A DNA stretch of 25,865 nt from a virus, in IMG/VR virus record IMGVR_UViG_3300044612_002755, positions 1-25,865 of that record. The stretch is one strand, 5' to 3'. This document shows, in pieces, positions 1 to 23,676 of this stretch. Every line of letters begins with the position of its first letter. Position 1 is the first letter of the stretch. The position numbers and the translations under genes are program-made. The notes below the pieces were generated by a model. That model was not told the DNA's origin and did not search any database. It saw only the letters and a program-made list of their open reading frames with translations.

Positions 1-130
1 ATTCGAATAACCTCGCAGGCCCGGGGCGCCAGAAGGACCCAAATAAATATAAACATATAAACAACAGATTGCAATTGCAGCTAATTATATATATCGCCAA
101 CATTTCCGATACAAACAATTATTTGCCTTT
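1..130. other. AT-rich left flank of the GC-rich island
   Basis: After about 40 mixed bases the sequence is strongly AT-rich up to about 130, with a run of alternating AT (about 85-95), and then switches abruptly to extreme GC. No convincing gene is visible. It mirrors the AT-rich flank at about 4143-4300 on the other side of the island. It could be a regulatory or junction region. Function is not determined. Confidence 0.5.
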
Positions 131-196
131 GAGCGTGGTTAGCGTTGCAGGTATCAGCTCGAGCGGTGGCGGTGGCGGCCCGGGTGACTGCGGCCC

Positions 197-366
197 GATA
201 TCAGCAAACGGGGCCAGATCGGTTAGGGGTGATATCAGCGGGGGCGGCCAGGCCAGGGGCGGCAGATATCAGCAGGGCCGGCCAGATCGGCCGCCCCGCC
301 GTCAGTGAGGCGGGCTTGAATCACGGGCGGCCGATATCAGCGGGCCCGTCTGCCGGGCGGCCCGGT
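197..366. repeat. Degenerate 34-bp tandem repeat (about five units)
   Basis: The word GATATCAGC occurs at 197, 231, 265 and 333, exactly 34, 34 and 68 bases apart. This implies five 34-bp units, with the fourth (299-332) degenerate. Units 1 and 3 also share GGCCAGATCGG after the core. A weaker copy (GGTATCAGC) lies at 150, out of register. No minus-strand gene covers this stretch, so the array is probably non-coding. It lies downstream of the five-gene minus-strand operon and its terminator. The role is unknown; protein binding sites or replication slippage are possible. Confidence 0.7.
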
Positions 367-373
367 GGCCACC

Positions 374-438
374 GGCGGCCCAGGGTGGCGGCCCAGGGTG
401 GCGGCCCAGGGTGGCGGCCCAGGGTGGCGGCCCAGGGC
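374..438. repeat. 13-bp tandem repeat, five units, inside an inverted repeat
   Basis: GGCGGCCCAGGGT is repeated head-to-tail five times (374, 387, 400, 413, 426), the last unit ending in C. The array is bracketed by inverted copies of GGCCACCGGCGGCCC (about 367-381 and 434-448). It lies between the 34-bp array and the operon terminator. It is probably a slippage-generated repeat in a region already biased to these words. Confidence 0.8.
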
Positions 439-449
439 CGCCGGTGGCC

Positions 450-486
450 AATAAAAAGACCCCCCGGCCAGGACGGCCAGGGGGTC
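450..486 (-). terminator. Intrinsic terminator of the island operon
   Basis: Read on the minus strand, GACCCCCTGGCC and GGCCGGGGGGTC can pair around a five-base loop (458-486), and the hairpin is followed directly by TTTTTATT (457-450). This is a textbook rho-independent terminator. It lies about 50 bases beyond the stop of the last gene of the minus-strand operon. Just upstream of it (480-515) the sequence GGGGTCA is repeated several times. Confidence 0.8.
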
Positions 487-533
487 AGGGGTCAGGGGTC
501 AGGGTCAGACGGTCAGGGCCGGCGGCCCAGGGA

Positions 534-1619
534 TCACCAAATCAGACGGGCGGCACCATCTGGCAACCGTTGCGGGTGATCGGTGGCGGCCAGGCTGAAC
601 TGATCCGCCACCAATCGATCGGCCCCCCTGCTGACCTTTACGGTCAAGGCCAACGCCACCCCGTGGGGATCGGCCCACCGGTGATCGGTAAGGTCACCCG
701 GAACCACCGGCACCGTTACGGGTGAGCCACCGGCGGGGGTGAGCTCGAGCGCCACCGGCAGGGCCTGCCCCCGGCCCAGGGCGATGGGCACGGCCAGGCG
801 GAAGCCGGCCCTCAGGGCGGCGGTGGCGTCAGCGGTGGCGGTGGCCCGATCGGCAGCCATCGATGCCGTCACATCCCACCCGGCGGCCCGTTGCGCAGCC
901 AGGCCCAGGGGCCCGGACACGGGGGCTTTGCTGTAATCGTAAAAGTGCAACGAGCCCTCGCCCCGTGGCACGGCCAGGGCCTGGGCCAGGGTGAGCTGAT
1001 CACCCGGAACCACCGGCAACCCGTAACGGTGGCCCAGGGCCGCCGTATCTGCCGGGGTGATCGGCACCCATAAGCGGTGCCACCCGATCGCCGGCCCCTC
1101 ATCGGTGCCCCTCAGTCTCACGGCCAGGGCCTGGCCGGCAGTCTGGGCCCTGGCCCAGGCCCGGGCGGTGGCCCATAGGACCGCCCGCCCATAGGTGACA
1201 GGGTCAGCGATCAGCGCAAGGGTGCGGCGGCCCCGGGCGGTGGCCACCGCCGCACTGATCCCACCATGGCCGGCCCAGGCCAGGCAACCGGCGGCGCATC
1301 CGGCGGTAGCCCAGGGGCACCCGTTCCACCGGCGGCCCCGATCGGCCACCCCCTCGCGGGCGGCCAGGGCGGCCAGGGCCGGCAGATAGGACCGGGGGGC
1401 GGTGGGCCCAGGGCGGCCAGGGGTCAGGGCGGCGGCCAGGGACCGGGCCGGCAGGTGATGCAGGATCACCCCGGCGGCCAGATCGGCCCCCTTGGCAAGC
1501 TTGGGGTTTGAATCAGTCAGCAAATCGGCCAGGGTCAGGCTGAACCGGGCCAGATGGGCCGCGATATCGGCCGGCAGTGCTAGCGGGGCGGTCCGGCGGG
1601 CGGTGGCAGTGGTTTGCAT
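534..1619 (-). CDS. DUF7227/gp88-like three-cysteine phage protein
   Basis: This 361-residue protein has the signature of phage proteins that I associate with DUF7227 or mycobacteriophage gp88-like families. NPKLAKG lies at residues 38-44, three cysteines in a C-x6-C-x3-C pattern at 101, 108 and 112, RLRGTDE at 168-174 and HFYDYSK at 225-231. The family is phage-borne and I know of no established biochemical role. The clustered cysteines suggest a bound metal or Fe-S centre, which is inference. It is the last gene of the island operon and is followed by a strong terminator. The family assignment is from motif memory only. Composition is extreme (Ala/Leu/Gly/Arg, GC-rich codons) yet all motifs are intact, so the gene is probably functional. 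Confidence 0.75.
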   Translation of the reverse strand: MQTTATARRTAPLALPADIAAHLARFSLTLADLLTDSNPKLAKGADLAAGVILHHLPARSLAAALTPGRPGPTAPRSYLPALAALAAREGVADRGRRWNGCPWATAGCAAGCLAWAGHGGISAAVATARGRRTLALIADPVTYGRAVLWATARAWARAQTAGQALAVRLRGTDEGPAIGWHRLWVPITPADTAALGHRYGLPVVPGDQLTLAQALAVPRGEGSLHFYDYSKAPVSGPLGLAAQRAAGWDVTASMAADRATATADATAALRAGFRLAVPIALGRGQALPVALELTPAGGSPVTVPVVPGDLTDHRWADPHGVALALTVKVSRGADRLVADQFSLAATDHPQRLPDGAARLIW

Positions 1620-1683
1620 GGTATGGGTGAGCGGGGCTCAGGGTGAGCCCCTAAGGGGGCCGGCATGCGGCCCCGGTAGGGGG

Positions 1684-1917
1684 TCAGGCCCAGGCCTGAA
1701 AAGCAAGGGTGGGCAGGGCAGCCGCGCCCCATAGGGGGCTCGAGTCTGCGGCCAGGCCCACCGCCCGCCCGAGCTGATCAGCGGCCCAGGCATGCGGCAA
1801 CCGACAACCGGTGGGCGGTGGCCCATAGGTTCGGCTCACCCGGCGGCCGGCCAGGGTGGCCCAGGCCCGATAACGGCCCGGGGCCGTCTGCCGGGTCCTG
1901 ATGACGTAGGGGGTCAA
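1684..1917 (-). CDS. Small basic protein of unknown function in the island operon
   Basis: A 77-residue protein. The start is TTG (1917-1915), overlapping the TGA of the upstream gene in a TTGA junction, which is why I prefer it. The first 35 residues are basic with beta-strand character (RYRAWATLAGRRVSRTYG), and the rest is Ala-rich and probably helical. The N-terminal shape resembles an arm- or SH3-like strand pair, but I do not recognise a family. It lies between the 258-residue gene and the DUF7227-like gene and is probably co-transcribed with both. Confidence 0.55.
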   Translation of the reverse strand: MTPYVIRTRQTAPGRYRAWATLAGRRVSRTYGPPPTGCRLPHAWAADQLGRAVGLAADSSPLWGAAALPTLAFQAWA

Positions 1918-2690
1918 GGGGTCACCCCCTGCAGGGTGGCGATGACGGCAGGGCAGCCGCCACGGGCGGCCAGGGCCTGGGCCACCGCGGCAGGGTCAGG
2001 GTCCAAGCCGATCACATCTGCCAGACGGCGGGCGGTGGCCCGCATCGGGGCCGTCAGGAGCCACCCGGCGGCCTGAGCTGCGGCCAGGGCACCGGCAGGG
2101 CTGAGCTCACCCGAGAATGCCAGCCCCTCGATCGGGCGGCCCAGGATATCGGCCAGGGCCACCCCCTCAGTGGGCCACTGCCACCCCGCCACCATCGGCC
2201 GGGGCCGATCGGTTCCGGTGGCAACCCGGGCCATCGCAACGGCCAGGGCCAGGGGGTCGGCAGGGTCGGCCGGCTCGGCCCCGGCGGTGATTGCCTCGAG
2301 CTCAGCAGCGGCGGCCAGGGCCCATACGGCCCGCTCACCCGCGGCCAGGGCCTGGCCCTCGCCTGGGTGAGCCATCACGTAAGCGTAGGTTTCGCCGCCG
2401 TCAAGCGATGCGGGGGCTGGCAGGGCCTGCCACGGGAGCCCCTCGCGGCGCAGCAGAGCTACGGCGGCGGCACAGGGGCCCTCTGCCGCGGGCACAGCCA
2501 GACGGGCGGCCCGATCGCGAGGTGAGCGCCTGATAGTGGCAACCCACTGGTTCCGGCCGTGGCTGTCAGAGCAGAATCGGACGATCACCGCGGGGCGGGA
2601 TCCGACAATCGGGCAGTGGCTGACGTCAGTGGCGACCCGATCGCGGCCCAGGGCGGCCAGGGCGGCAGGATCGTAGGGGTGAGAATGCAT
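1914..2690 (-). CDS. Hypothetical alanine-rich island protein
   Basis: This 258-residue protein starts at ATG 2690. Residues 20-60 look like a folded N-terminal segment (DVSHCPIVGSRPAVIVRF, then HGRNQWVATIRR). The rest is Ala/Leu-rich helix, with a conserved-looking stretch GWQWPTEGVALADILGRPIE near residue 170. No catalytic motif is recognised. It sits 19 bases downstream of the 51-residue gene and overlaps the 77-residue gene by four bases, so it belongs to the same operon. Its word usage matches the other island genes and differs from the rest of the window. Confidence 0.6.
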   Translation of the reverse strand: MHSHPYDPAALAALGRDRVATDVSHCPIVGSRPAVIVRFCSDSHGRNQWVATIRRSPRDRAARLAVPAAEGPCAAAVALLRREGLPWQALPAPASLDGGETYAYVMAHPGEGQALAAGERAVWALAAAAELEAITAGAEPADPADPLALAVAMARVATGTDRPRPMVAGWQWPTEGVALADILGRPIEGLAFSGELSPAGALAAAQAAGWLLTAPMRATARRLADVIGLDPDPAAVAQALAARGGCPAVIATLQGVTP

Positions 2691-2709
2691 GAGTCCTAGT
2701 GGTAAGGGG

Positions 2710-2865
2710 TCAGGGTTGAACGGGGGCCACCCTTAGATGGGCGTCGGGTGAGATACGGGCGGCCAGGGCGGCCAGGCGGTGGGCGTCAGATAGGGGCCGG
2801 GCGGCCCCTAACGTTTGCCACCCGGCGGCGATCCCACGCCACCGGCAGACGGTCGCGAGGATCAC
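2710..2865 (-). CDS. 51-residue small protein translationally coupled to the gene upstream
   Basis: The start is GTG (2865-2863), sharing GTGA with the stop of the 321-residue gene. Both the overlap and the change of residue composition at that point support this start. The protein (VILATVCRWRGIAAGW at the N-terminus) is probably helical and basic-amphipathic. A longer reading from 3003 would be out of style (Pro/Arg/His-rich) and overlap the upstream gene extensively, so I reject it. Function is unknown. Confidence 0.55.
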   Translation of the reverse strand: MILATVCRWRGIAAGWQTLGAARPLSDAHRLAALAARISPDAHLRVAPVQP

Positions 2866-3827
2866 AGCGCCACCCCCTGCCCACGGCAGAGCTCGAGCGC
2901 TCGGGCCTGGGCCCGGGTGACCGGGGGCAGGGCGGCCAGGGCGGCGGCGGCGGTGGCGATGGCCCCTATGGGCAGGGCGGCCAGGGCCCGATCGGTCGAC
3001 CACTCGCCCGCCATGATCGGGCCATCACTAACCCAGGACCCCGGCAGGGTGACCCCGGCCCCTGTCAGGGCCTGAGCGATCGGCCACAAGATGGCCACCC
3101 GCTCACCCTGCAGGGCCACCCGGGCCCGAGCCTCAGGGGTCCCCGGGTCCCAAGGTTGACCGGCCCAGGCGTCGCCCGTAGGGGCGGGGCTGAGCTGATC
3201 AGCCCAGGCAGTCAAGGCGTCAGCATGCGCCACCGCGGCGGCGGCCCTGTCAGGGTCACCCGCGGCGGCCAGGCGGGCCCCCTCGGCCGATCGGGTGATA
3301 GCCCGGGCCTTGAGGCTGTCAGGGCACGGGGCGGGCTCTGACAGGCCCACGGCTAAAAGGCGGGCCAGGCGGGCCAGACTGACAGGGCGGCCCGCTGCAG
3401 CGGCGGCCCTGAGCTCGGGCAGGGTGATCGGCTCAGCCGGTGGCGCGGGCGGGGCCGGTGGCAGGGGCTCACCCGGCAGCACCGGGCGGCGGCGGGCGGC
3501 CGGCAGATGGCCGACCCCGCTCAGGCCCAGGGATTGGCCCAGGTCAGCGGCCAGGGCGGCCAGATTGACAGGGGCGGGCTCAGACGTTGCGCTCAGGCGG
3601 GGCCGGGCCTGGGCCACCGGCTCAGCCACCGGGGCGGCCACCGGGGCGGGCTCAGCGGCGGCCATCTGCCGCAACCGGCCCAGGTTGACGGCGCGGCCAT
3701 CGACGACATACCGCAACGTTTGGCACCCGTACCGGCGGGCGGCGTCCGGGCCGGTGGCGCGGGTGACCGTGTGGCCGGCGGCCCGCAACGCGGCGACCGC
3801 GGCGGCGGCGGTGATCAGAACTGACAT
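2862..3827 (-). CDS. First gene of the island operon, hypothetical Ala/Pro-rich protein
   Basis: I place the start at ATG 3827, giving 321 residues. An ATG at 4004 would add 59 residues that look like translated spacer. Residues 1-55 form a compact domain: a helix (AAAAVAALRAAGHTVTRA), then CQTLRYVVDGRAVNLGRLRQM, which looks like strand-turn-helix. A Pro/Ala linker follows (about 60-150), then a helical C-terminal half ending LELCRGQGVAL. The family is not recognised. The upstream DNA carries a 35-bp tandem repeat array and an AT-rich inverted repeat that could control this operon. No clear Shine-Dalgarno sequence is seen before the start. Confidence 0.6.
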   Translation of the reverse strand: MSVLITAAAAVAALRAAGHTVTRATGPDAARRYGCQTLRYVVDGRAVNLGRLRQMAAAEPAPVAAPVAEPVAQARPRLSATSEPAPVNLAALAADLGQSLGLSGVGHLPAARRRPVLPGEPLPPAPPAPPAEPITLPELRAAAAAGRPVSLARLARLLAVGLSEPAPCPDSLKARAITRSAEGARLAAAGDPDRAAAAVAHADALTAWADQLSPAPTGDAWAGQPWDPGTPEARARVALQGERVAILWPIAQALTGAGVTLPGSWVSDGPIMAGEWSTDRALAALPIGAIATAAAALAALPPVTRAQARALELCRGQGVAL

Positions 3828-3967
3828 AACTAAGGGTGAGCAAAGGCCCCTTATAGGGGTCACCCATAAATAGGACCGCGGCGGCCGTTTGGCAAGGGCA
3901 CCCGGGGCGGCTGTGACAGATACCAGCCCGGCCCCGTTGCAGACGGCGCCACCGGTGGCGGGACCGT

Positions 3968-4142
3968 ACCGGCAGGCGGTCACCCCACCCGGGGCGGTCG
4001 CCACCGGCAGGCGGTCACCCCACCCGGGGCGGTCGCCACCGGCAGGCGGTCACCCCACCCGGGGCGGCGGACACCGGCAGGCGGTCACCCCACCCGGGGC
4101 GGCGGACACCGGCAGGCGGTCACCCCACCCGGGGCGGCGGCC
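3968..4142. repeat. 35-bp tandem repeat, five units
   Basis: Five 35-bp units start at 3968, 4003, 4038, 4073 and 4108. The first 30 bases (ACCGGCAGGCGGTCACCCCA plus ACCCGGGGCGG) are essentially identical. The last bases vary: units 1-2 end GTCGCC, units 3-4 end GCGGAC and unit 5 ends GCGGCC. The period is not a multiple of three and the array lies upstream of the operon, so it is unlikely to be coding. It could be an iteron or operator array, or simple slippage. Near-identity points to recent expansion. Confidence 0.85.
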
Positions 4143-4159
4143 AATCGACAAAATATAAA

Positions 4160-4256
4160 TATATCGTAGCGGTTGAGTTAATGATATTTTGCGATCTGCG
4201 CGGCTGGCTTATAGCGTGCATGTTGCAAAATATAGTTAACTCTCTGCGACGATATA
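4160..4256. repeat. AT-rich imperfect inverted repeat with 32-33 base arms
   Basis: The left arm (4160-4192), read in reverse complement, aligns with the right arm (4225-4256). They share GCAAAATAT, then TTAACTC, then GC-x-ACGATATA, with a spacer of 32 bases. A third partial copy of the core (ATTGCAAAATATAATTTA) lies at about 4275-4293. It sits between the 35-bp array and the ligase-side genes, with no gene of its own. Plausible roles are an operator or promoter pair, or an origin-type element. The rest of 4257-4423 has a GC-rich patch (4317-4380) and nothing else that I recognise. Confidence 0.65.
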
Positions 4257-4423
4257 GCAATCGCGCAAAAGTACGATTGCAAAATATAATTTACCTTATG
4301 CTCATACCCGCATACAGGGGTAGACCGTGCGCGAGCACTTCCGCGGGGCGGCGGGGCAGCGCCAAGGAGCTGGCCGCCATAAATCGCCAAGATCTTGTGT
4401 ATATAAAATCTTGAAAAAACACT

Positions 4424-4500: not shown

Positions 4501-4842
4501 CTGGCACAGATACATCCAATAATGCACAATCGCGTCAGTGACGTAACATTCGCAGTCCCACCAGTCTTCACACACTGCGTGCGAAACAATGTCGTTCCAG
4601 ATGTCATTGCAGAACCACACGTGCTTCCGTGATAAGATTTGTGACACCGCATAGATGAATCCGGCGGTGTCAATCGCAGCAGACCGTGAATCAATCGCAA
4701 TAATGTTCCACTGGCAGTAACCGGTCGCCCACATGCTGTCGAGCCATTCGGGCAGCTTCTCAGACAGCCTTGCCATCAAGAATTCAAACTGCTCGTCATC
4801 AATTGCGACCTCGACAGTCGCATAGCTGGTGTAGTTATTCAT
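4468..4842 (-). CDS. Unknown Cys/Trp-rich protein after the ligase
   Basis: I start this gene at ATG 4842, where ATGA overlaps the ligase stop, giving 124 residues. The N-terminus looks like strand-helix (ATVEVAIDDEQFEFLMARLSEKLPEWLDSM). The C-terminal half is rich in Cys, Trp and Asp (WFCNDIWNDIVSHAVCEDWWDCECY), which is unusual. No family is recognised. It has none of the zinc-finger, HhH or BRCT pattern expected of the missing ligase C-terminus. The overlap implies translational coupling to the ligase. Confidence 0.65.
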   Translation of the reverse strand: MNNYTSYATVEVAIDDEQFEFLMARLSEKLPEWLDSMWATGYCQWNIIAIDSRSAAIDTAGFIYAVSQILSRKHVWFCNDIWNDIVSHAVCEDWWDCECYVTDAIVHYWMYLCQKNLELAECRF

Positions 4843-5564
4843 GGCTTCAGTGCGATCGCCCAACGAGGTGCGCGGCTGGTGTGACCCATCCGTGCCTGCT
4901 GCATCTTGCTGTCGACCTTGACAACAAGACCATCGCAATCGAATGGCATTGCATGTTGCAGTGCGCAGAAATCCCTGAACATCGACTCAACATCAGCGAC
5001 ATCTTCAGCCGCCATACAGTCAAGAACTGCGAATCCGGCGCACTTGAGCCACTGCACCGCAGCGGTCACCGTCGCCACGTCGCGCATGCCCACCAGGTCG
5101 AACGCCAGCACCTGCAGTTTGACCTTGCCGTCACCGCGCCTCAGAGCGGCTGCACAGGCGTTCCGGGACAGCCCAGGTGCGATGACCTCGCCACGGACCT
5201 CCACCAGGCCCTCAGGATCGCCCGGGAGCTCGGTGATGATCCCTGCACGCAGCGCAGCCTCGGTGACGTCCCTGCCGCCGCGCAGGTGGGCGTGGACGAA
5301 CACGCCATCGCGGTACACGAGGTTGATCGAGACGCCGTCGGCCTTGAGCTGCACGCAGAAGGGCCCCTGAGAGGCCTCCAGCCATGCCTGCCAATGCGTG
5401 GGTACGTCGAGGGACAGCAAGGGGCCCTGCAGACCCTCCTGGGCGCCTCTGGCGGCCAGCCAGTCGAACCATTGGTCCGGGACGATGGGAGTGCCACGCC
5501 TGTAGGCCGCGTCAGCCAGCTTGATCAGTGCATTAAGCATCGGTTTAAGAACGTCAACGCCCAT
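4839..5564 (-). CDS. Truncated NAD-dependent DNA ligase (adenylation domain)
   Basis: The protein (241 residues from ATG 5564) carries the nucleotidyltransferase motifs of bacterial LigA. The catalytic KADG lysine is at residue 74. EVRGEV lies at about 122-127, DGLVVKVD at about 211-218 and APRWAIALKP at 232-241, the motif V lysine being the second-last residue. The N-terminus keeps part of domain Ia (VPDQWFDWL, then LLSLD near 51). The gene stops right after motif V, so the OB-fold, zinc finger, HhH and BRCT domains of a full-length ligase of about 670 residues are absent. It could activate with NAD, but nick joining without an OB-fold is doubtful. A split ligase, as in phage T5, is one model, but the neighbour does not look like the other half. 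ATGA and TGATG overlaps on both sides argue that the short length is real. Confidence 0.85.
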   Translation of the reverse strand: MGVDVLKPMLNALIKLADAAYRRGTPIVPDQWFDWLAARGAQEGLQGPLLSLDVPTHWQAWLEASQGPFCVQLKADGVSINLVYRDGVFVHAHLRGGRDVTEAALRAGIITELPGDPEGLVEVRGEVIAPGLSRNACAAALRRGDGKVKLQVLAFDLVGMRDVATVTAAVQWLKCAGFAVLDCMAAEDVADVESMFRDFCALQHAMPFDCDGLVVKVDSKMQQARMGHTSRAPRWAIALKP

Positions 5565-6262
5565 CACCGTATCGCACGCTCCAACGCTTCGTCAAGGTAT
5601 CGCGGGAAATTTTCCCGAGCGAAACGATCCGTAATGCCAAACCAGTCGTATTTGGTCCCCACGGTCGGCAGTTTGGGCGCATAGCCGAAGAGCATGAACA
5701 GCGATCGGCCCTTGCGCTGGTAAATGCCGGGCTTCAGGTTCCCGCGCTTGGGCCCGCTCTTGCGTCCGTCTGGTGTCGAGAAGAAGCTCCCGTCATCACG
5801 CCGCAGACCCGCCTTGACCTGCGAGTACTGGCTGGGCGCCATGTTCCCGTAGGCGTTCACCCGCACACCCCGCCCGCCGATGAACGGGATCGGGTGCTGG
5901 GTGGTGATGCCCTCCCGGCGCAGGAACGTGGCAAACCGGGTCTGGTACACCGGCTTCCGGCCGGCTCCGTCCTGGGTGCTGACCGGGTAGAGGTAGCTAG
6001 CCGGTGCCTGACCCTTCGGCCCGTCGGTGCTGATTCGAAACCTGAGCTCGAGGCCATCAGCCGAGTACCTGGGGCTGGCCAGCGTGAACGGCACCGGGTT
6101 GTCGAACCCACCGGACTCCATCCACTGCCGGTGGTGCTGCTTGAGCTCCCACCCGAGCTTCTTGAGCGCCTGCGACCCGGCGTAACGCATCTGCACGGCC
6201 CGGAGTGCGTCCAGGCGGCTGACCAACTGGCGTGCGTCGAACTGGATCACAGGGTTGGCCAT
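5564..6262 (-). CDS. Putative phage virion protein (head-tail completion type)
   Basis: This 232-residue protein resembles a widespread phage family from head-tail modules. It has an N-terminal helix pair (ALRAVQMRYAGSQALKKLGW), a central segment with RVNAYGNMAPSQYSQVKAGLR, and then PGIYQRKGRSLFMLFGYAP followed by YDWFG. A C-terminal helix typical of these proteins comes last (FPRYLDEALERAIR). The likely role is capsid, neck or tail completion. This is recognition from memory without alignment. Unusually it is the first gene of a unit followed by a ligase. ATG 6262 follows a purine-rich stretch (GGGGGGCAGAATTGGGAC). Confidence 0.6.
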   Translation of the reverse strand: MANPVIQFDARQLVSRLDALRAVQMRYAGSQALKKLGWELKQHHRQWMESGGFDNPVPFTLASPRYSADGLELRFRISTDGPKGQAPASYLYPVSTQDGAGRKPVYQTRFATFLRREGITTQHPIPFIGGRGVRVNAYGNMAPSQYSQVKAGLRRDDGSFFSTPDGRKSGPKRGNLKPGIYQRKGRSLFMLFGYAPKLPTVGTKYDWFGITDRFARENFPRYLDEALERAIR

Positions 6263-10731: not shown

Positions 10732-10777
10732 CGCCGATGGCGAATTTATTGGTCAGATCGAATGGCTAACTGAATAA
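10637..10777 (+). CDS. Small basic hypothetical protein
   Basis: ATG 10637 opens 46 residues (MRRFYYQIKRLNKIGMVWAR, then ISYSADGEFIGQIEWLTE). The strand-like end and mixed composition look protein-like. It overlaps the membrane protein frame by 95 bases and the end of the convergent VRR-NUC gene by 12 bases. No family is recognised. Confidence 0.45.
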   Translation: MRRFYYQIKRLNKIGMVWARSRVEALQIISYSADGEFIGQIEWLTE

Positions 10778-11113
10778 CCGCTGGGCGTCTTCCACCGAGC
10801 GAGCAACGCCTGCGATGCCACCGCGAGAGCGGATGAAATCGATGAACCTCTGCTGTTCGGGCCTGACCCGACCAGTGGGGGTTTTTACTTCGCAGGCACT
10901 GAAGACGGCCATGGTGCGACCGACGTGCTCAGGGCCGATGGTGATGGTGCGGAGGCCGATCAGGTCCGAGCCGCCGGGATTGGCAACGCCGAATTCAACC
11001 CAGCGATTGGTGCGTGGGTCGGGGAGCTTGCCGCAGTTGTTGCGCCAGAGGGTGACGTCTGGCCTGGTACCGAGCGCAAGTCGAATTGCTTGTTGGACGT
11101 GCTGTTCGGACAT
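10766..11113 (-). CDS. VRR-NUC (PD-(D/E)XK) nuclease
   Basis: This 115-residue protein is a stand-alone VRR-NUC domain: GVANPGGSDLIG (the catalytic Asp region), then FSACEVKTPTGRVRPEQQRFI (the E-x-K core and following motif). Such proteins are common in phages, where they act as Holliday junction or flap-type nucleases. It is probably expressed with the helicase 51 bases upstream, although a hairpin with a T-run lies immediately before its ATG (see the terminator at 11114-11145). Confidence 0.85.
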   Translation of the reverse strand: MSEQHVQQAIRLALGTRPDVTLWRNNCGKLPDPRTNRWVEFGVANPGGSDLIGLRTITIGPEHVGRTMAVFSACEVKTPTGRVRPEQQRFIDFIRSRGGIAGVARSVEDAQRLFS

Positions 11114-11145
11114 AAAAAAGGGCCCCCCTTCACTTTGAGGCCCTT
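11114..11145 (-). terminator. Terminator-like hairpin between helicase and VRR-NUC
   Basis: On the minus strand AAGGGCC and GGCCCTT can pair (11139-11145 with 11118-11124) around a purine-rich loop, followed at once by T-residues that run into the ATG of the VRR-NUC gene. It could end helicase transcription or attenuate VRR-NUC expression. Any Shine-Dalgarno sequence for VRR-NUC (AAGGGG) would lie inside the loop, which suggests structural control of its translation. Confidence 0.6.
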
Positions 11146-11164
11146 GTTTGGTGCCGGGTGCAGT

Positions 11165-12538
11165 TTACGCCGTCTTGAGCTGTTTCCGCTGCCTTGCTTG
11201 CCAGATGTGCTTGGCCCAGCCCTCGGAATAGCCCTTTTCGCGAGCGCGTTGGACCAGATCTTCGTATGTTTTGCAACCTGCTGCAGGATGCGGCTTGCGG
11301 ATCTTCTGAGCTACTTCACTTGTAATTTCAAGAAGCTCACCTTCAACGATACGCGGTCCTTCACGTTCTGCAACAAAATAAGTATGTCCACAGCAAGGGC
11401 ACACGGGTGCCGGAGCGTGAGCGGCAAAGCATGCAGGACATTGACGCACAGGTGGTGCTGCCTGGCCTTTGCGCTTCCGTCGTCCTTCCAGGGTCCATTC
11501 TCGCGGCTCGTCTGGCATTCCATGCTCGAATACGTTTCCGGCATGATCGAGGACAACAAGGTCGCCTTTATCTTGATGGATACGCAGTCCTCTTCCTATC
11601 GATTGCAAGTAAACCGTGACTGACTTGGTGGGTCTCAAGAGAATCACGCAGCCGATGTTGGGGCAATCGACACCAGCGACCCACAGGCCGACGTTCGCCA
11701 CGAGATCGATCTGGCCGGCCTTGAGGGCCTCCAGCGCATGCTTCCGCTCACCGGCGGTCGATTTGCCTGAGATCGCGACTGCCCTGAACCCTGCAGCAGC
11801 GAATGCTTCTGCTGTGTGGGTGGCGTGCTTGATGTTGGTGCAGAACGCGACCGCTGGCCGGCCCTGGGCGTACTTGCGGTAGGCCGCGATGGCGTCGCCG
11901 GTGATGGTGGGCTGGTCCATGATCTCGGCCAAGTCGCCCTCGTCGTAATCGCCACCGCGATCGCGGACGTTGGTGAGGTCTGGCAGCGATGGGGCGTAGT
12001 AGCGGAAGGACGAGAGCAGGCCCTCATCGATCAGGTCCCGGGTGGAGCAAGTGGGCACGAGGTGATCGAAGAGCTCGTTGAGGCCCTTGCGATCGAGACG
12101 CTCTGGTGTGGCGGTGAGACCCAGGAGTCTCGGGTTGCCGGCTGCCTCGATGACGCGGAGGTAGGTCTTGGCGACTGCCAGGTGGCATTCGTCGATGATG
12201 ATCAGCGCTGGCTTGGACAGGATCGGCCGCCGTGCTGCGGTTTGCACCGAGACCACCTGCACCATGGCGGTCGGATCCGAGGGCATGCCGGCCATGATGA
12301 AACCGTGCTGGATGCCCTCACCGGTGAGCCGGCGGCTGGTGTCGAGCAGGATTTCCTGCAGGTGCGCGAGGAACCAGACGGGATTGCCCCGGCTGATCGC
12401 TGATCGGATGATCTCAGCGGCTGTTGCTGTCTTGCCCATGCCGGTCGGCGCGACGAGCACCACGGCATCCCGGCCGGCCCGGTAGGCAGCACGCAGATCA
12501 TCGACTGCTTTTTGTTGTCTGGGGCGTAGTGCAGGCAT
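11165..12538 (-). CDS. SF2 DEAD/DEAH-type helicase with a C-terminal zinc finger
   Basis: I take ATG 12538, giving 457 residues; an ATG at 12556 adds six residues and would place the start inside the promoter. SF2 motifs are Walker A APTGMGKT at 30-37, DECH at 116-119, TATPER at 142-147 and QSIGRGLRI near residue 320. Two CxxC pairs (CPAC and CPCC, near 380-395) form a probable zinc finger. The family includes phage ATP-dependent helicases that unwind or remodel branched DNA. It lies in a unit with the VRR-NUC nuclease and diverges from the RecE-like nuclease, which suggests a joint role in recombination. Confidence 0.9.
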   Translation of the reverse strand: MPALRPRQQKAVDDLRAAYRAGRDAVVLVAPTGMGKTATAAEIIRSAISRGNPVWFLAHLQEILLDTSRRLTGEGIQHGFIMAGMPSDPTAMVQVVSVQTAARRPILSKPALIIIDECHLAVAKTYLRVIEAAGNPRLLGLTATPERLDRKGLNELFDHLVPTCSTRDLIDEGLLSSFRYYAPSLPDLTNVRDRGGDYDEGDLAEIMDQPTITGDAIAAYRKYAQGRPAVAFCTNIKHATHTAEAFAAAGFRAVAISGKSTAGERKHALEALKAGQIDLVANVGLWVAGVDCPNIGCVILLRPTKSVTVYLQSIGRGLRIHQDKGDLVVLDHAGNVFEHGMPDEPREWTLEGRRKRKGQAAPPVRQCPACFAAHAPAPVCPCCGHTYFVAEREGPRIVEGELLEITSEVAQKIRKPHPAAGCKTYEDLVQRAREKGYSEGWAKHIWQARQRKQLKTA

Positions 12539-12572
12539 TGCCAAAGCATACTGCATCGTGTATGCTGTGCAA
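12538..12572. promoter_or_regulatory. Overlapping divergent sigma70-like promoters around a palindrome
   Basis: On the + strand TTGCCA (12538-12543) and TATGCT (12561-12566) are separated by 17 bases. On the minus strand TTGCAC (12572-12567) and TATGCT (12550-12545) are separated by 16. The two -10 boxes are the arms of the inverted repeat AGCATAC / GTATGCT (12545-12551 and 12560-12566). The two promoters face each other, so one bound protein or polymerase could block the other. The minus-strand promoter would give a nearly leaderless helicase transcript if ATG 12538 is the start. Confidence 0.65.
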
Positions 12573-12586
12573 GTCCTACCTTAGAT

Positions 12587-13477
12587 GTGACCTTGCATCC
12601 TGACGAGTACCACGCGCATCCGGCGATGTCCGCGACGCGCCTAAAAGCAATGGTGACCGGCACTGCGCTGGATTATTGGGCCAAGCATGTTGACCCTGAG
12701 CGGGAGGTGTTCCAGCCCACCGACGCGATGCGCCAAGGGTCGCTGGTTGACTGCCTGCTGACGGAGCCGACGGAGTTCCACAAGCGCTATGCGGTGCTGC
12801 CGGCTGACGCGCCGAAGAAACCGACCAGCAGCCAGCGCAATGCGGCCAAGCCATCGGAAGCGACCGTCCTGGCGATCGCCTGGTGGGATCAGTGGCTGCT
12901 GAGCAACGACGGGAAGGAGGTCGTGAATGAGGAGTGGATCGACACCGCTCACGCGATCGCCGGCCGGTTGCGTGCAGATCCAGTGATCGGGCCGCTGCTG
13001 GCGAGCTTGCCGACGAAGCAGAAACCGCATTTCTGGACTGATGCTGAGGGCCGCCAGTGCCGGTACAAACCGGACCTCGAGGTGCCGGGGCAGAAGATCC
13101 TGCTGGACCTGAAGAAGACGATCAGCGCTCACCCGCTGATGTTCAGGAACCAGGCGTGGAAACTGGGCTATGACGTGCAGCTCGCGCATTACAGCCTGGG
13201 CTATGCCGACCGGCACGGGTTTGCCCCTGAGCAGACGGGGTTCATCGCGTATGAATGGAAGAAGCCTTACAACTACTCACTTGTGTGGGCTGACGAGGAA
13301 TTCATCGACGAAGGCTTCCGCAGGCGCGACGAGGCATTCGACCGCATAGCCGAATACGAAGCGCGAAACGAATGGCCCAGCTACGGTGAGGCGTGGATTG
13401 TGCCGCCTGCGTGGGCTGATGTGTCATCCGCTGATGACGATACAAATCTTGATGATCTTGGCTTGGAGGGTCTATGA
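12587..13477 (+). CDS. RecE/Exo VIII-like PD-(D/E)XK nuclease
   Basis: This 296-residue protein starts with GTG 12587, about 20 bases downstream of the predicted -10. It has the RecE C-terminal nuclease pattern (DUF3799-like): AMSATRLKAMVTGTALDYW at the start, GSLVDCLL at about 51, then CRYKPDLEV...ILLDLKKT (metal-binding D and E/D-x-K core) and YDVQLAHYSLGY. These enzymes resect dsDNA ends to feed a recombinase. A matching recombinase (RecT/Erf) is not obvious in the window. The next gene overlaps by ATGA. It contains two HIP1 sites (12872, 12953). Confidence 0.9.
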   Translation: MTLHPDEYHAHPAMSATRLKAMVTGTALDYWAKHVDPEREVFQPTDAMRQGSLVDCLLTEPTEFHKRYAVLPADAPKKPTSSQRNAAKPSEATVLAIAWWDQWLLSNDGKEVVNEEWIDTAHAIAGRLRADPVIGPLLASLPTKQKPHFWTDAEGRQCRYKPDLEVPGQKILLDLKKTISAHPLMFRNQAWKLGYDVQLAHYSLGYADRHGFAPEQTGFIAYEWKKPYNYSLVWADEEFIDEGFRRRDEAFDRIAEYEARNEWPSYGEAWIVPPAWADVSSADDDTNLDDLGLEGL

Positions 13478-14071: not shown

Positions 14072-14404
14072 ATGAGTTTCAACGTCATTTCCGCCCAGGA
14101 CATCCCTACCACTACCACTCGAATTACAAAAACCTTCCCGTTGAGGACTGCCCTGCAGCAGCTCCAGATCGGTGAAGCAATCGAGGTGGCTTACGACACC
14201 GCCGATGAAGAGTTTGGCTACAAGGCCACCACGATCTCTCAGGTCGCTGGTGCAATGTCGGCTCGTTCCGAGACCATCCGCTATTCGGTGAAGCGCAAGC
14301 CCGATGGCAGCGGCTGCTATCTGATTGCCAATGCCAAGCCGGCACCTGGCACCGAGAAGAAGCGCGGCCGTCGCAGCACCAAGAAGGCTGAGGTGGAAGC
14401 ATGA
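14072..14404 (+). CDS. Small basic protein of the recombination operon
   Basis: A 110-residue protein whose N-terminal part holds FPLRTALQQLQIGEAIEVAYDTADEEFGYKATTI and whose basic tail (KKRGRRSTKKAEVEA) is typical of nucleic-acid binding. The middle (AMSARSETIRYSVKRK) could be a helix-turn-helix-like segment. No family is recognised. ATG 14072 follows a 22-base gap after the previous gene, and the stop overlaps the next gene as ATGA. Confidence 0.65.
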   Translation: MSFNVISAQDIPTTTTRITKTFPLRTALQQLQIGEAIEVAYDTADEEFGYKATTISQVAGAMSARSETIRYSVKRKPDGSGCYLIANAKPAPGTEKKRGRRSTKKAEVEA

Positions 14405-14964
14405 GCAGCTTTGCTGCCAATGGCGCCATCTTCCGTCAGGATCCGAATGTGCTGCGTCAGCGTATGGGTGACCGCTTCGATCCGTCGAAGCAGTATCCGG
14501 CGTACTCGGGGACGATCAATGTGCCGGCTGATCAGGCCTATGCGATCGCTGAGTACCTGATGAATGCGCAGCCCAACGAGCGCAACGAGATCCCGGTGAG
14601 CGTGTCTGGCTGGGACAAGTCCTCGAACACCCAGCCTTGGTACATGAGTGTCCAGCTCAAGCCAGACAGCCGGGTGCAGCCTGCTGCGGCCCCGGCTGCT
14701 GCTGCTGCTGCTGCGCCCGCTGCCCAGGCCGCCCCGGGCGCCTGGGGCCCGCCCGGTGCTCCGGCCGCCCCAGCTGCTCCGGCCGCACCGGCTGGCTGGG
14801 GGCATCCCGGCGCCCCGGCCGCCGCACCGGCTCCCGCTCCCGCTGCGGCCCCGGCAATGACCCCGCCACCGGTGAATCCACCTGGCTGGGGTCCGCCACC
14901 CAGCGCTGCACCAGCAGCCGCACCAGCTGCTCAGCCTCCTGGTGCCTGGCAACCTCCGTTCTGA
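14401..14964 (+). CDS. Putative ssDNA-binding protein with Ala/Pro-rich tail
   Basis: Residues 1-95 look like a compact beta-rich domain (YSGTINVPADQAYAIAEYL, then PVSVSGWDKSSNTQPWYMSVQLKP), shaped like small OB-fold phage SSBs. Residues 97-187 are a low-complexity tail of Ala, Pro and Gly with WG spacers, ending QPPF. Bacterial SSBs have a disordered tail ending in DDDIPF; this tail keeps only the final Pro-Phe and lacks the acids. Position after the nuclease operon supports SSB. The assignment is structural inference. A hairpin terminator follows. Confidence 0.5.
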   Translation: MSSFAANGAIFRQDPNVLRQRMGDRFDPSKQYPAYSGTINVPADQAYAIAEYLMNAQPNERNEIPVSVSGWDKSSNTQPWYMSVQLKPDSRVQPAAAPAAAAAAAPAAQAAPGAWGPPGAPAAPAAPAAPAGWGHPGAPAAAPAPAPAAAPAMTPPPVNPPGWGPPPSAAPAAAPAAQPPGAWQPPF

Positions 14965-19473: not shown

Positions 19474-19696
19474 ACAGGTCGTGGAGCTCCCTTTGTCAGC
19501 CCGAGAACTGCCGTTGGCGATCGCCGAGGCCGAGCAGCTTTATGCGGATGCGAAGACCATCACCAATGGGCGCCCGACCTGCCAGCAATGCACTCACTGG
19601 CAGTTTGTAGCCGGTGAGTGCTCACTGGGATTCCCGGAGGGTAGGCGCTCTGGTGGTAGATGCGCCCACGAGTGCTCAGCGTTCTGGCTGGCCTGA
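19391..19696 (+). CDS. Small Cys-rich (zinc-finger-like) protein
   Basis: GTG 19391 (or ATG 19421) opens up to 101 residues. The middle reads WIVRLKVGKQVVELPLSARELPLAIAEAEQLYADAKT. The end carries four cysteines in CQQCTHW, GECSLGFPEG and GRCAHECSAFW, probably a metal site. Similar Cys-tailed small proteins occur in cyanophages. It overlaps the kinase by up to 83 bases, and its end overlaps the convergent HNH gene by about 100 bases. Confidence 0.55.
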   Translation: MPSLRYHSGRMVLLPAGDQWIVRLKVGKQVVELPLSARELPLAIAEAEQLYADAKTITNGRPTCQQCTHWQFVAGECSLGFPEGRRSGGRCAHECSAFWLA

Positions 19697-19998
19697 CGCC
19701 TCACCCAGGCCAGCACCCGCAGGGCCCTGGGAATGCTCCAGTATTTCTGCTGCGTCCACCATGCCCACACCGGCTGGTGACCCTTGTTGCCGTTGCAACG
19801 CTTGCAGGCGGGCACCAGGTTGTATTTCACGGTCAATCCACCGTTGAGTCTTGGCACAACGTGATCGAGCGTATCGGCATAGTTGCCGCAATACGCGCAA
19901 TTGTGTCCCCAAGCCTCAAAGATTGAATGCCGAAAACGCTGCTTACTTGCACGCTTGGGGATCAGCTCTGCTTCCTGAATCGCGTGATCCATCGTCAT
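19594..19998 (-). CDS. HNH endonuclease
   Basis: The 134-residue protein has a classical HNH core: CAYCG, then LDHVVPRLNGG, then NLVPACKRCNGNKG, with the zinc-holding CxxC pairs. It probably nicks or cuts DNA, as a free-standing homing or packaging-associated nuclease. The C-terminal 30 residues overlap the opposite-strand Cys-rich gene and may be untidy. The start (ATG 19998) overlaps the upstream small gene by 56 bases; a downstream start is possible. Confidence 0.8.
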   Translation of the reverse strand: MTMDHAIQEAELIPKRASKQRFRHSIFEAWGHNCAYCGNYADTLDHVVPRLNGGLTVKYNLVPACKRCNGNKGHQPVWAWWTQQKYWSIPRALRVLAWVRRQASQNAEHSWAHLPPERLPSGNPSEHSPATNCQ

Positions 19999-23364: not shown

Positions 23365-23676
23365 ATGGTTCAACCGGGCGATGAAATAAATTTTTTTGAT
23401 ACAAGGGCTAAAAAGGCTCGGTACAAGCAACATGTCTTAAATTTTTGGAACAATCAGTGCGCTTATTGCAAAGAGCCCCTTGGTCGCTCTGGAACCCTTG
23501 ATCATATCGTGCCTCGTTCTAAGGGAGGTGAAACGGTTCGATCCAATCTGGTGGCATGCTGCTACTCATGCAACACCAGAAAAGGATCGCTGTCAGAATG
23601 GAGAGAATGGTTTAGGGCCCAAGATTTTTGGACCCAAGATTCGGAAGACGCTTTAGACTTGTGGCTCAACGGCTAA
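23365..23676 (+). CDS. HNH endonuclease (AT-rich)
   Basis: The 103-residue protein has the HNH core CAYCKEPLG, LDHIVPRSKGG and NLVACCYSCNTRKG, with paired cysteines holding a zinc. It is AT-rich compared with the flanking genes and lies on the opposite strand between the holin-like gene and the next membrane gene. Both features suggest an independently mobile homing-type insertion into the lysis region. It overlaps the convergent neighbour by 11 bases. Confidence 0.8.
   Translation: MVQPGDEINFFDTRAKKARYKQHVLNFWNNQCAYCKEPLGRSGTLDHIVPRSKGGETVRSNLVACCYSCNTRKGSLSEWREWFRAQDFWTQDSEDALDLWLNG

What the first reader, a model, noticed from the sequence alone, without database searches (positions are those of the whole stretch)
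1..4142. Extreme-composition island of repeated words flanked by tandem arrays
From about 130 to 4142 nearly all the DNA, coding or not, is built from a few GC-rich words (GGCC, CAGGG, GATCGG, GGGTGAGC). CAGGG is frequent on the + strand while its complement is rare, so the island is strand-asymmetric. Arrays of 34, 13 and 35 bp lie at its ends and AT-rich DNA borders it. The non-coding 130-530 part has the same words as the genes, so this is not codon bias alone. Yet the five genes read cleanly and one has intact motifs. I see no HIP1 site in it. It looks like DNA with a separate history from the rest.
Basis: partly seen in the sequence, partly recalled or inferred. Interest (0 to 1): 0.75.

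Follow-up and report, generated by a model that had tools for sequence, protein, structure and literature searches.

The report
Word-iterated GP88 island beside cos
The last 4 kb of this virus genome is a swappable gene cassette whose DNA, in genes and between genes alike, is built from a small virus-specific stock of repeated GC-rich words; the same kind of cassette occurs in dozens of other uncultured phages and its cause is not known.

Summary
Window base 1 is the physical right (cos) end of a lambda-like phage genome, probably of picocyanobacteria: contig ends pile up on one 13-nt cohesive end, with lambda's GGGTCCT beside it and TerS-TerL-portal beyond it. The island is the terminal GP88 (PF17338) cassette. 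Some 60 viral contigs carry GP88 relatives; in nearly all island-lineage members checked, GP88 sits in a sharply bounded GC-rich island whatever the phage's own GC, at cos in one phage group and mid-genome in another.

The surprise is at DNA level. Against a null keeping protein, codon usage and codon-boundary dinucleotides, most GP88 genes show about 2-5x too many repeated 8-12-mers. Ordinary genes of the same phages and 70-76% GC actinobacterial genes do not. Each phage has its own vocabulary, shared by coding and non-coding island DNA (p=5e-5), and it differs between phages with 89-98% identical terminases. Whole-unit indels (7, 12, 2x35 bp) separate the window from its nearest relative.

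Best reading: a cassette swapped between phages, continually rewritten by short-word duplication and copying under purifying selection. The process that spreads the words is inferred, not shown.

The parts
1..13 (-). Right cohesive end of the virion DNA (AGGTTATTCGAAT on the - strand), shared 13 nt with left-arm contigs
   Evidence: Ten left-arm contigs start and four right-arm contigs end at fixed bases 13 nt apart; adapter remnant in L030; same 13 nt at both ends of G001 and G003
34..40 (-). GGGTCCT, cosQ-like site
   Evidence: Conserved in relatives; same word about 30 bp from lambda's right end
41..130 (.). AT-rich border between island and cos
   Evidence: a similar border (20-40% GC windows) in nearly all relatives checked
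150..345 (.). Non-coding part with five copies of TATCAGC / GATATCAGC amid island words
   Evidence: same word, in the other orientation, in L002
374..437 (.). 13-bp tandem array, 4.9 copies (5.4 in L002)
451..486 (-). Terminator-like GC hairpin with T run, just after GP88
   Evidence: Read from sequence; counterparts after GP88 in most relatives shown
534..1619 (-). GP88 protein (361 aa), core gene of the cassette
   Evidence: PF17338 27.9 bits over cut-off 24.4; phrog_1617; dN/dS 0.14 against L002
1684..1917 (-). 77-aa protein of unknown function
   Evidence: Homologues in L002, L046, L003, L047; dN/dS 0.07
1914..2690 (-). 258-aa protein of unknown function
   Evidence: Homologues in L002, L043, L003, L046, L007; dN/dS 0.05
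2710..2874 (-). Reading frame of about 54 aa, start uncertain
   Evidence: Homologues in L002, L047, L003
2862..3827 (-). 321-aa protein of unknown function
   Evidence: Homologues in L002, L049, L043, L046; dN/dS 0.19
3612..3664 (-). 12-bp tandem words inside the 321-aa gene; L002 has one more exact unit in frame
3968..4140 (.). 35-bp tandem array, 4.9 copies (3.0 in L002)
4143..4310 (.). AT-rich border on the inner side
   Evidence: present in L002 across the junction

Best explanation
The island is the right-terminal accessory cassette, centred on GP88, of a lambda-like cos phage that probably infects picocyanobacteria. Shown: it ends at the virion's cohesive end; it encodes conserved proteins under purifying selection; homologous cassettes sit in sharply bounded GC-rich islands in many phages; each island has its own stock of iterated DNA words, used in genes and non-coding DNA alike; and GP88 has been exchanged between phages. 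Inferred mechanism: the cassette's DNA is continually rewritten by duplication and short-tract copying of words within itself (replication slippage, unequal exchange, template switching or ectopic conversion) and is passed between phages by recombination, while selection on the proteins only filters the result. The property travels with the cassette and not with its place beside cos, since it is equally present where GP88 lies mid-genome. What GP88 does for the phage is not known; an accessory enzyme is a guess.
For: Location: contig-end pile-up and 13-nt overlap, TerS-TerL-connector-portal beyond the motif, lambda cosQ word. Real island: L002 carries both junctions. Family-wide. DNA-level words: with GC-rich control genes negative. 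Private vocabularies. Exchange: terminases 89-98% identical but GP88 51-70% for most pairs, and L006 with 47% terminase but 70% GP88 identity to L049. Ongoing word gain and loss: three of six indels against L002 are whole tandem units, one of them in frame inside a gene. Synonymous differences tend to land on vocabulary words (p=0.035).
Against: Dispersal of words is not observed directly; only tandem unit gain and loss is. The excess does not fall with distance, which simple slippage would predict. The vocabulary test fails for L007, L008 and L053, and the word excess is weak in L003, L008, L009 and L010. Exchange is not unique to GP88, as the right arm is mosaic generally. No enzyme that would do the copying is identified; no reverse transcriptase was found.
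Confidence: 0.45

Rival explanations
1. The words are selected: each island is a dense field of recognition sites for a sequence-specific protein (a Chi-like signal for a host exonuclease, a nucleoid protein, or GP88 itself), and the word set follows that protein.
For: Words are phage-specific, frame-independent and found in non-coding DNA. In the cos group the island lies at the right end, which in lambda is the end left free (own knowledge). Vocabulary goes with the GP88 allele.
Against: Vocabularies are broad and hold many different words instead of one motif. The islands of the second phage group are not near the ends of their contigs. Vocabularies differ among phages with nearly identical terminases, which probably share hosts.
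Confidence: 0.22
2. Simple transfer: the cassette was acquired, repeatedly and recently, from a GC-rich gene pool whose DNA already looks like this, and nothing special happens in the phage.
For: GP88 is incongruent with the phage backbone. Composition is foreign to low-GC phages.
Against: GC-rich actinobacterial genes lack the word excess. Almost no cellular source was found in the genome scan. Alleles are 50-60% identical, so old, yet still GC-rich in phages near 50% GC. L086, a 35% GC phage, keeps both effects. Unit indels show ongoing change.
Confidence: 0.2
3. A location effect: recombination at the cos end, the programmed double-strand break, with exonuclease VIII, drives GC-biased conversion of the terminal segment.
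For: In the cos group GP88 is the last gene before cos. All complete cos-group genomes searched carry the exonuclease VIII family.
Against: The same word excess and GC island occur where GP88 is mid-genome and that nuclease family was not found. Edges are sharp instead of graded.
Confidence: 0.08
4. Artefact or trivial cause: chimeric assembly, or merely Ala-rich proteins with biased codon use.
For: Much of the GC excess is at codon positions 1 and 2, and most of the CAGGG asymmetry is expected from codon usage.
Against: An independent contig carries both junctions. The word excess is beyond a null keeping protein, codons and boundary dinucleotides. Non-coding DNA shares the words.
Confidence: 0.03

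Closest known systems
Lambda-type cos site (cosQ-cosN-cosB) and lambda-like left end
   Same: GGGTCCT 27-30 bp from the end, cohesive ends, then TerS, TerL, connector and portal
   Different: 13-nt shared end instead of lambda's 12, with a different sequence
GP88 family (PF17338, phrog_1617), function unknown
   Same: All 42 aligned members match PF17338
   Different: Here it lies in a GC-rich, word-iterated island; distant members L093, L097 and L098 do not show the word excess
Phage accessory modules of foreign composition ('morons') in mosaic lambdoid phages
   Same: Terminator-like hairpin, foreign composition, exchange between phages
   Different: Composition and word structure persist over deep divergence instead of fading, and cover a cassette of several genes
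HIP1 (GCGATCGC) of cyanobacteria
   Same: Short words iterated in coding and non-coding DNA of a probable cyanobacterial setting
   Different: One palindrome genome-wide (PMC4390886) against many words, confined to one cassette and different in each phage; HIP1 itself is absent from this island
Cryptically simple DNA (slippage-derived low complexity)
   Same: Excess of short repeated motifs and whole-unit indels
   Different: Excess is equally strong at long range, in reading frames under purifying selection
Synechococcus phage S-LBS1
   Same: Related terminase (44% identity to that of L008) and shared VRR-NUC / SF2 helicase module
   Different: 34.6 kb; the window's GP88 found no match in the phage collection, which holds S-LBS1

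Membership tests
Lambda-type cos end | Fixed molecular ends shared by left- and right-arm sequences | tested here: met
   10 of 16 contigs start at one base, right arms end 13 nt further on, adapter remnant in L030; both ends of G001 and G003
Lambda-type cos end | cosQ word near the right end | tested here: met
   GGGTCCT 27 bp before the overhang in the window; lambda has it about 30 bp before its end
Lambda-type cos end | Terminase small and large subunit genes directly beyond the site | tested here: met
   phrog_57 and phrog_15 in L002; same order in L003, L006, L008
Lambda-type cos end | 5' single-stranded overhang cut by terminase | not testable with these tools
   Only the filled-in overlap is seen
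GP88 (PF17338) | Profile match over the curated cut-off | tested here: met
   27.9 bits against 24.4; all 42 aligned members match
Moron-type accessory cassette | Foreign composition and exchange between phages | tested here: met
Moron-type accessory cassette | Own promoter and independent expression | not tested
   A terminator-like hairpin is visible; promoters were not examined
Moron-type accessory cassette | Not essential for the lytic cycle | not testable with these tools
   No isolate
HIP1-rich DNA | High frequency of GCGATCGC | tested here: not met
   0 copies in the island
Diversity-generating retroelement | Reverse transcriptase in the element's genome | tested here: not met
   No RVT_1 match in 18 records, control genomes ring; some records are fragments
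Radical-SAM enzyme (for GP88) | Radical-SAM barrel fold | tested here: inconclusive
   QueE, LipA and HydE head the VIA list at Z 4.0-5.6, below the level typical of chance; Foldseek none
Radical-SAM enzyme (for GP88) | Canonical CxxxCxxC cluster motif | tested here: not met
   Invariant cysteines are spaced C-x6-C-x3-C

The most novel reading that the evidence does not exclude
The GP88 cassette is a self-rewriting element: one of its products, or a phage function aimed at it, copies short DNA words from place to place inside the cassette. Each lineage thereby gets a private vocabulary that overrides synonymous codon choice and fills non-coding DNA. I know of no counterpart to such a targeted word-copying process.
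Probability: 0.12. Interest if true: 0.92.

Novelty: new variant of a known kind. Interest (0 to 1): 0.64.

Why it matters
Synonymous sites and non-coding DNA in this cassette obey a phage-specific word list, not the genome's codon habits. That breaks the usual assumption that composition reflects either host mutation bias or donor origin. It gives a concrete, testable locus in dozens of phages for asking whether a DNA-level copying process or word-level selection can shape coding sequence. The cos mapping also shows that many 'linear fragment' viral contigs really end at packaging termini, which fixes orientation and completeness for a whole uncultured phage group.

Tried and rejected
Chimeric assembly: rejected. 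Codon bias or Ala-rich proteins alone: rejected as the full cause. GC-richness alone as the cause of repeated words: rejected with 12 Nonomuraea genes. Short-range slippage alone: rejected, excess equal near and far. Diversity-generating retroelement: no RVT_1 in 18 records. Cos-end recombination as a general cause: weakened by mid-genome islands in which that nuclease family was not found. Island as host DNA: the genome scan found only three hits, two of them on MAG contigs. GP88 in isolated phages: no tblastn match in 50,697 records. GP88 fold against the PDB: no Foldseek match at E <= 0.001 and no VIA match above the level common by chance; profile against PDB sequences: nothing. PADLOC and NCBIfam: nothing usable. 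Papers on PF17338 by accession or family name: none held. The 191-aa protein after exonuclease VIII as an annealing protein like that of S-LBS1: no similarity. No tRNA in the window.
Full report
OBSERVATION. The window is a virus record of 25,865 bases. From about 130 to 4142 GC is 71-78%, with abrupt edges and AT-rich borders. Five reading frames, all on the - strand, cover most of it. All five have diverged homologues and dN/dS of 0.05-0.27 against the nearest relative, L002, so they are real genes.

WHERE IT IS. On the - strand the island is followed by an AT-rich stretch, then GGGTCCT, then GCGAGGTTATTCGAAT, which ends at window base 1. Relatives that continue past this motif (L002, L003, L006, L008) run into terminase small subunit, terminase large subunit, head-tail joining protein and portal. 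A pattern scan found 16 contigs with the far side of the motif: ten start at exactly the same base (AGGTNNTTCGA), five read through, and one (L030) carries the tail of an Illumina adapter joined to that base. Right-arm contigs (the window, L004, L005, L022) all end at one base, 13 nt further on. The 58,260-bp and 55,495-bp contigs G001 and G003 carry the same 13 nt at both ends. Lambda's own right end has GGGTCCT about 30 bp before its terminus. PMC4669245 confirms that cosQ is a conserved 7-bp site; that its sequence is GGGTCCT is my own knowledge, in keeping. Window base 1 is therefore the physical right end of the virion DNA, and the island is the last 4 kb of a genome of roughly 56 kb (size inferred from G001, G003 and G004). 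L034 and L025, whose terminases are 99-100% identical to that of L002, start with the window's own 13 nt and are probably left arms of the same phage type. The host is probably a picocyanobacterium, from the best hits of ThyX and the module shared with S-LBS1; this is indirect.

HOW GENERAL IT IS. A profile search found 65 viral loci encoding GP88 relatives. In the lambda-like group GP88 is at or near the right end, next to cos. In larger phages in which that terminase was not found (61-106 kb contigs) it lies inside the contig. In both groups it sits in an island of about 2-4 kb, typically 60-78% GC with sharp edges, although the rest is often near 50%. Four-fold-site GC of these GP88s is 61-86%, against 17-71% in the same phages' other genes. 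The coding strand is poor in purines and above all in adenine. A few distant PF17338 members (L093, L097, L098) do not lie in such islands.

DNA-LEVEL WORDS. The null shuffles synonymous codons while keeping the protein, codon usage and codon-boundary dinucleotides. Under it the window's GP88 has 87 repeated 10-mer pairs against 26 expected, and 25 repeated 12-mer pairs against 4. Most GP88 genes from other phages are about 2-5x over expectation. Thirteen ordinary genes from the same phages show little or none; the strongest is the low-complexity 187-aa gene at 14401-14964 (z about 2). Three distant GP88 homologues show little or none. Twelve genes of a 70-76% GC actinobacterium show none of note. 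The excess holds in frame and out of frame, and near and far. Some words that should occur 4-5 times never do, and these differ between phages.

PRIVATE VOCABULARIES. The k-mer profile of non-coding island DNA matches its own island's coding DNA better than that of other islands (14 loci in 10 groups, permutation p 5e-5 for k=4-6, also after removing dinucleotide effects). For most loci it matches the phage's own remaining genome poorly. The 5' half of GP88 predicts the 3' half of the same gene better than those of others, beyond codon and dinucleotide effects (29 phages, p 5e-5). L007, L008 and L053 fail the non-coding test, and L003, L008, L009 and L010 show weak word excess.

MOBILITY. Among phages with terminases 89-98% identical, GP88 identity falls to 51-70% for most pairs, and L006 (terminase 47%) has a GP88 70% identical to that of L049. 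Vocabularies differ within the same set. The right arm as a whole is mosaic, so exchange is not unique to GP88.

PROCESS. Of six indels of 3 bp or more between window and L002, three are whole tandem units: 12 bp inside the 321-aa gene, 2 x 35 bp, and 7 bp. Synonymous differences tend to fall on words already in the vocabulary (18.0 against 11.6, p=0.035). Word duplication is therefore seen directly at arrays; dispersal is inferred. No reverse transcriptase was found. Exonuclease VIII is present in the cos group but was not found in the mid-genome group, which argues against a general cos-end mechanism.

GP88 ITSELF. A confident model (mean pLDDT 89) has no significant structural match. Radical-SAM barrels are among the top of a list that is below the chance level, and the three invariant cysteines are spaced differently from the canonical motif. 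Function stays open.

VERDICT. The remaining finding is unusual and well controlled, but its cause is not established.

Noticed in passing
L030 cos end; G001 1-58260; G003 1-55495: L030 keeps an Illumina adapter tail ligated to the cos end, and two contigs classed as 'linear' are complete cos-to-cos genomes.
   Followed up: partly
window 4839-5567 (-): NAD-dependent DNA ligase with only the adenylation domain (242 aa; PF01653) right beside the island.
   Followed up: no
window 5564-6262 (-): A minor tail protein (phrog_1924) in the right arm, away from the structural module.
   Followed up: no
window 10766-13477: VRR-NUC, SF2 helicase and exonuclease VIII genes together, a layout partly shared with Synechococcus phage S-LBS1.
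   Followed up: partly
L114 711-2547 (G004): The terminase large subunit reads as several overlapping pieces in different frames, by sequencing error or real interruption.
   Followed up: no
L012, L013, L016, L017, L020, L023: Viral contigs of another kind carry a variant of the same cos-like motif (GGGTCCT...CCGCGAGGTAGTTCGAACCCC).
   Followed up: no
window 19594-19998 (-), 23365-23676 (+): Two reading frames that look like HNH endonucleases by eye.
   Followed up: no
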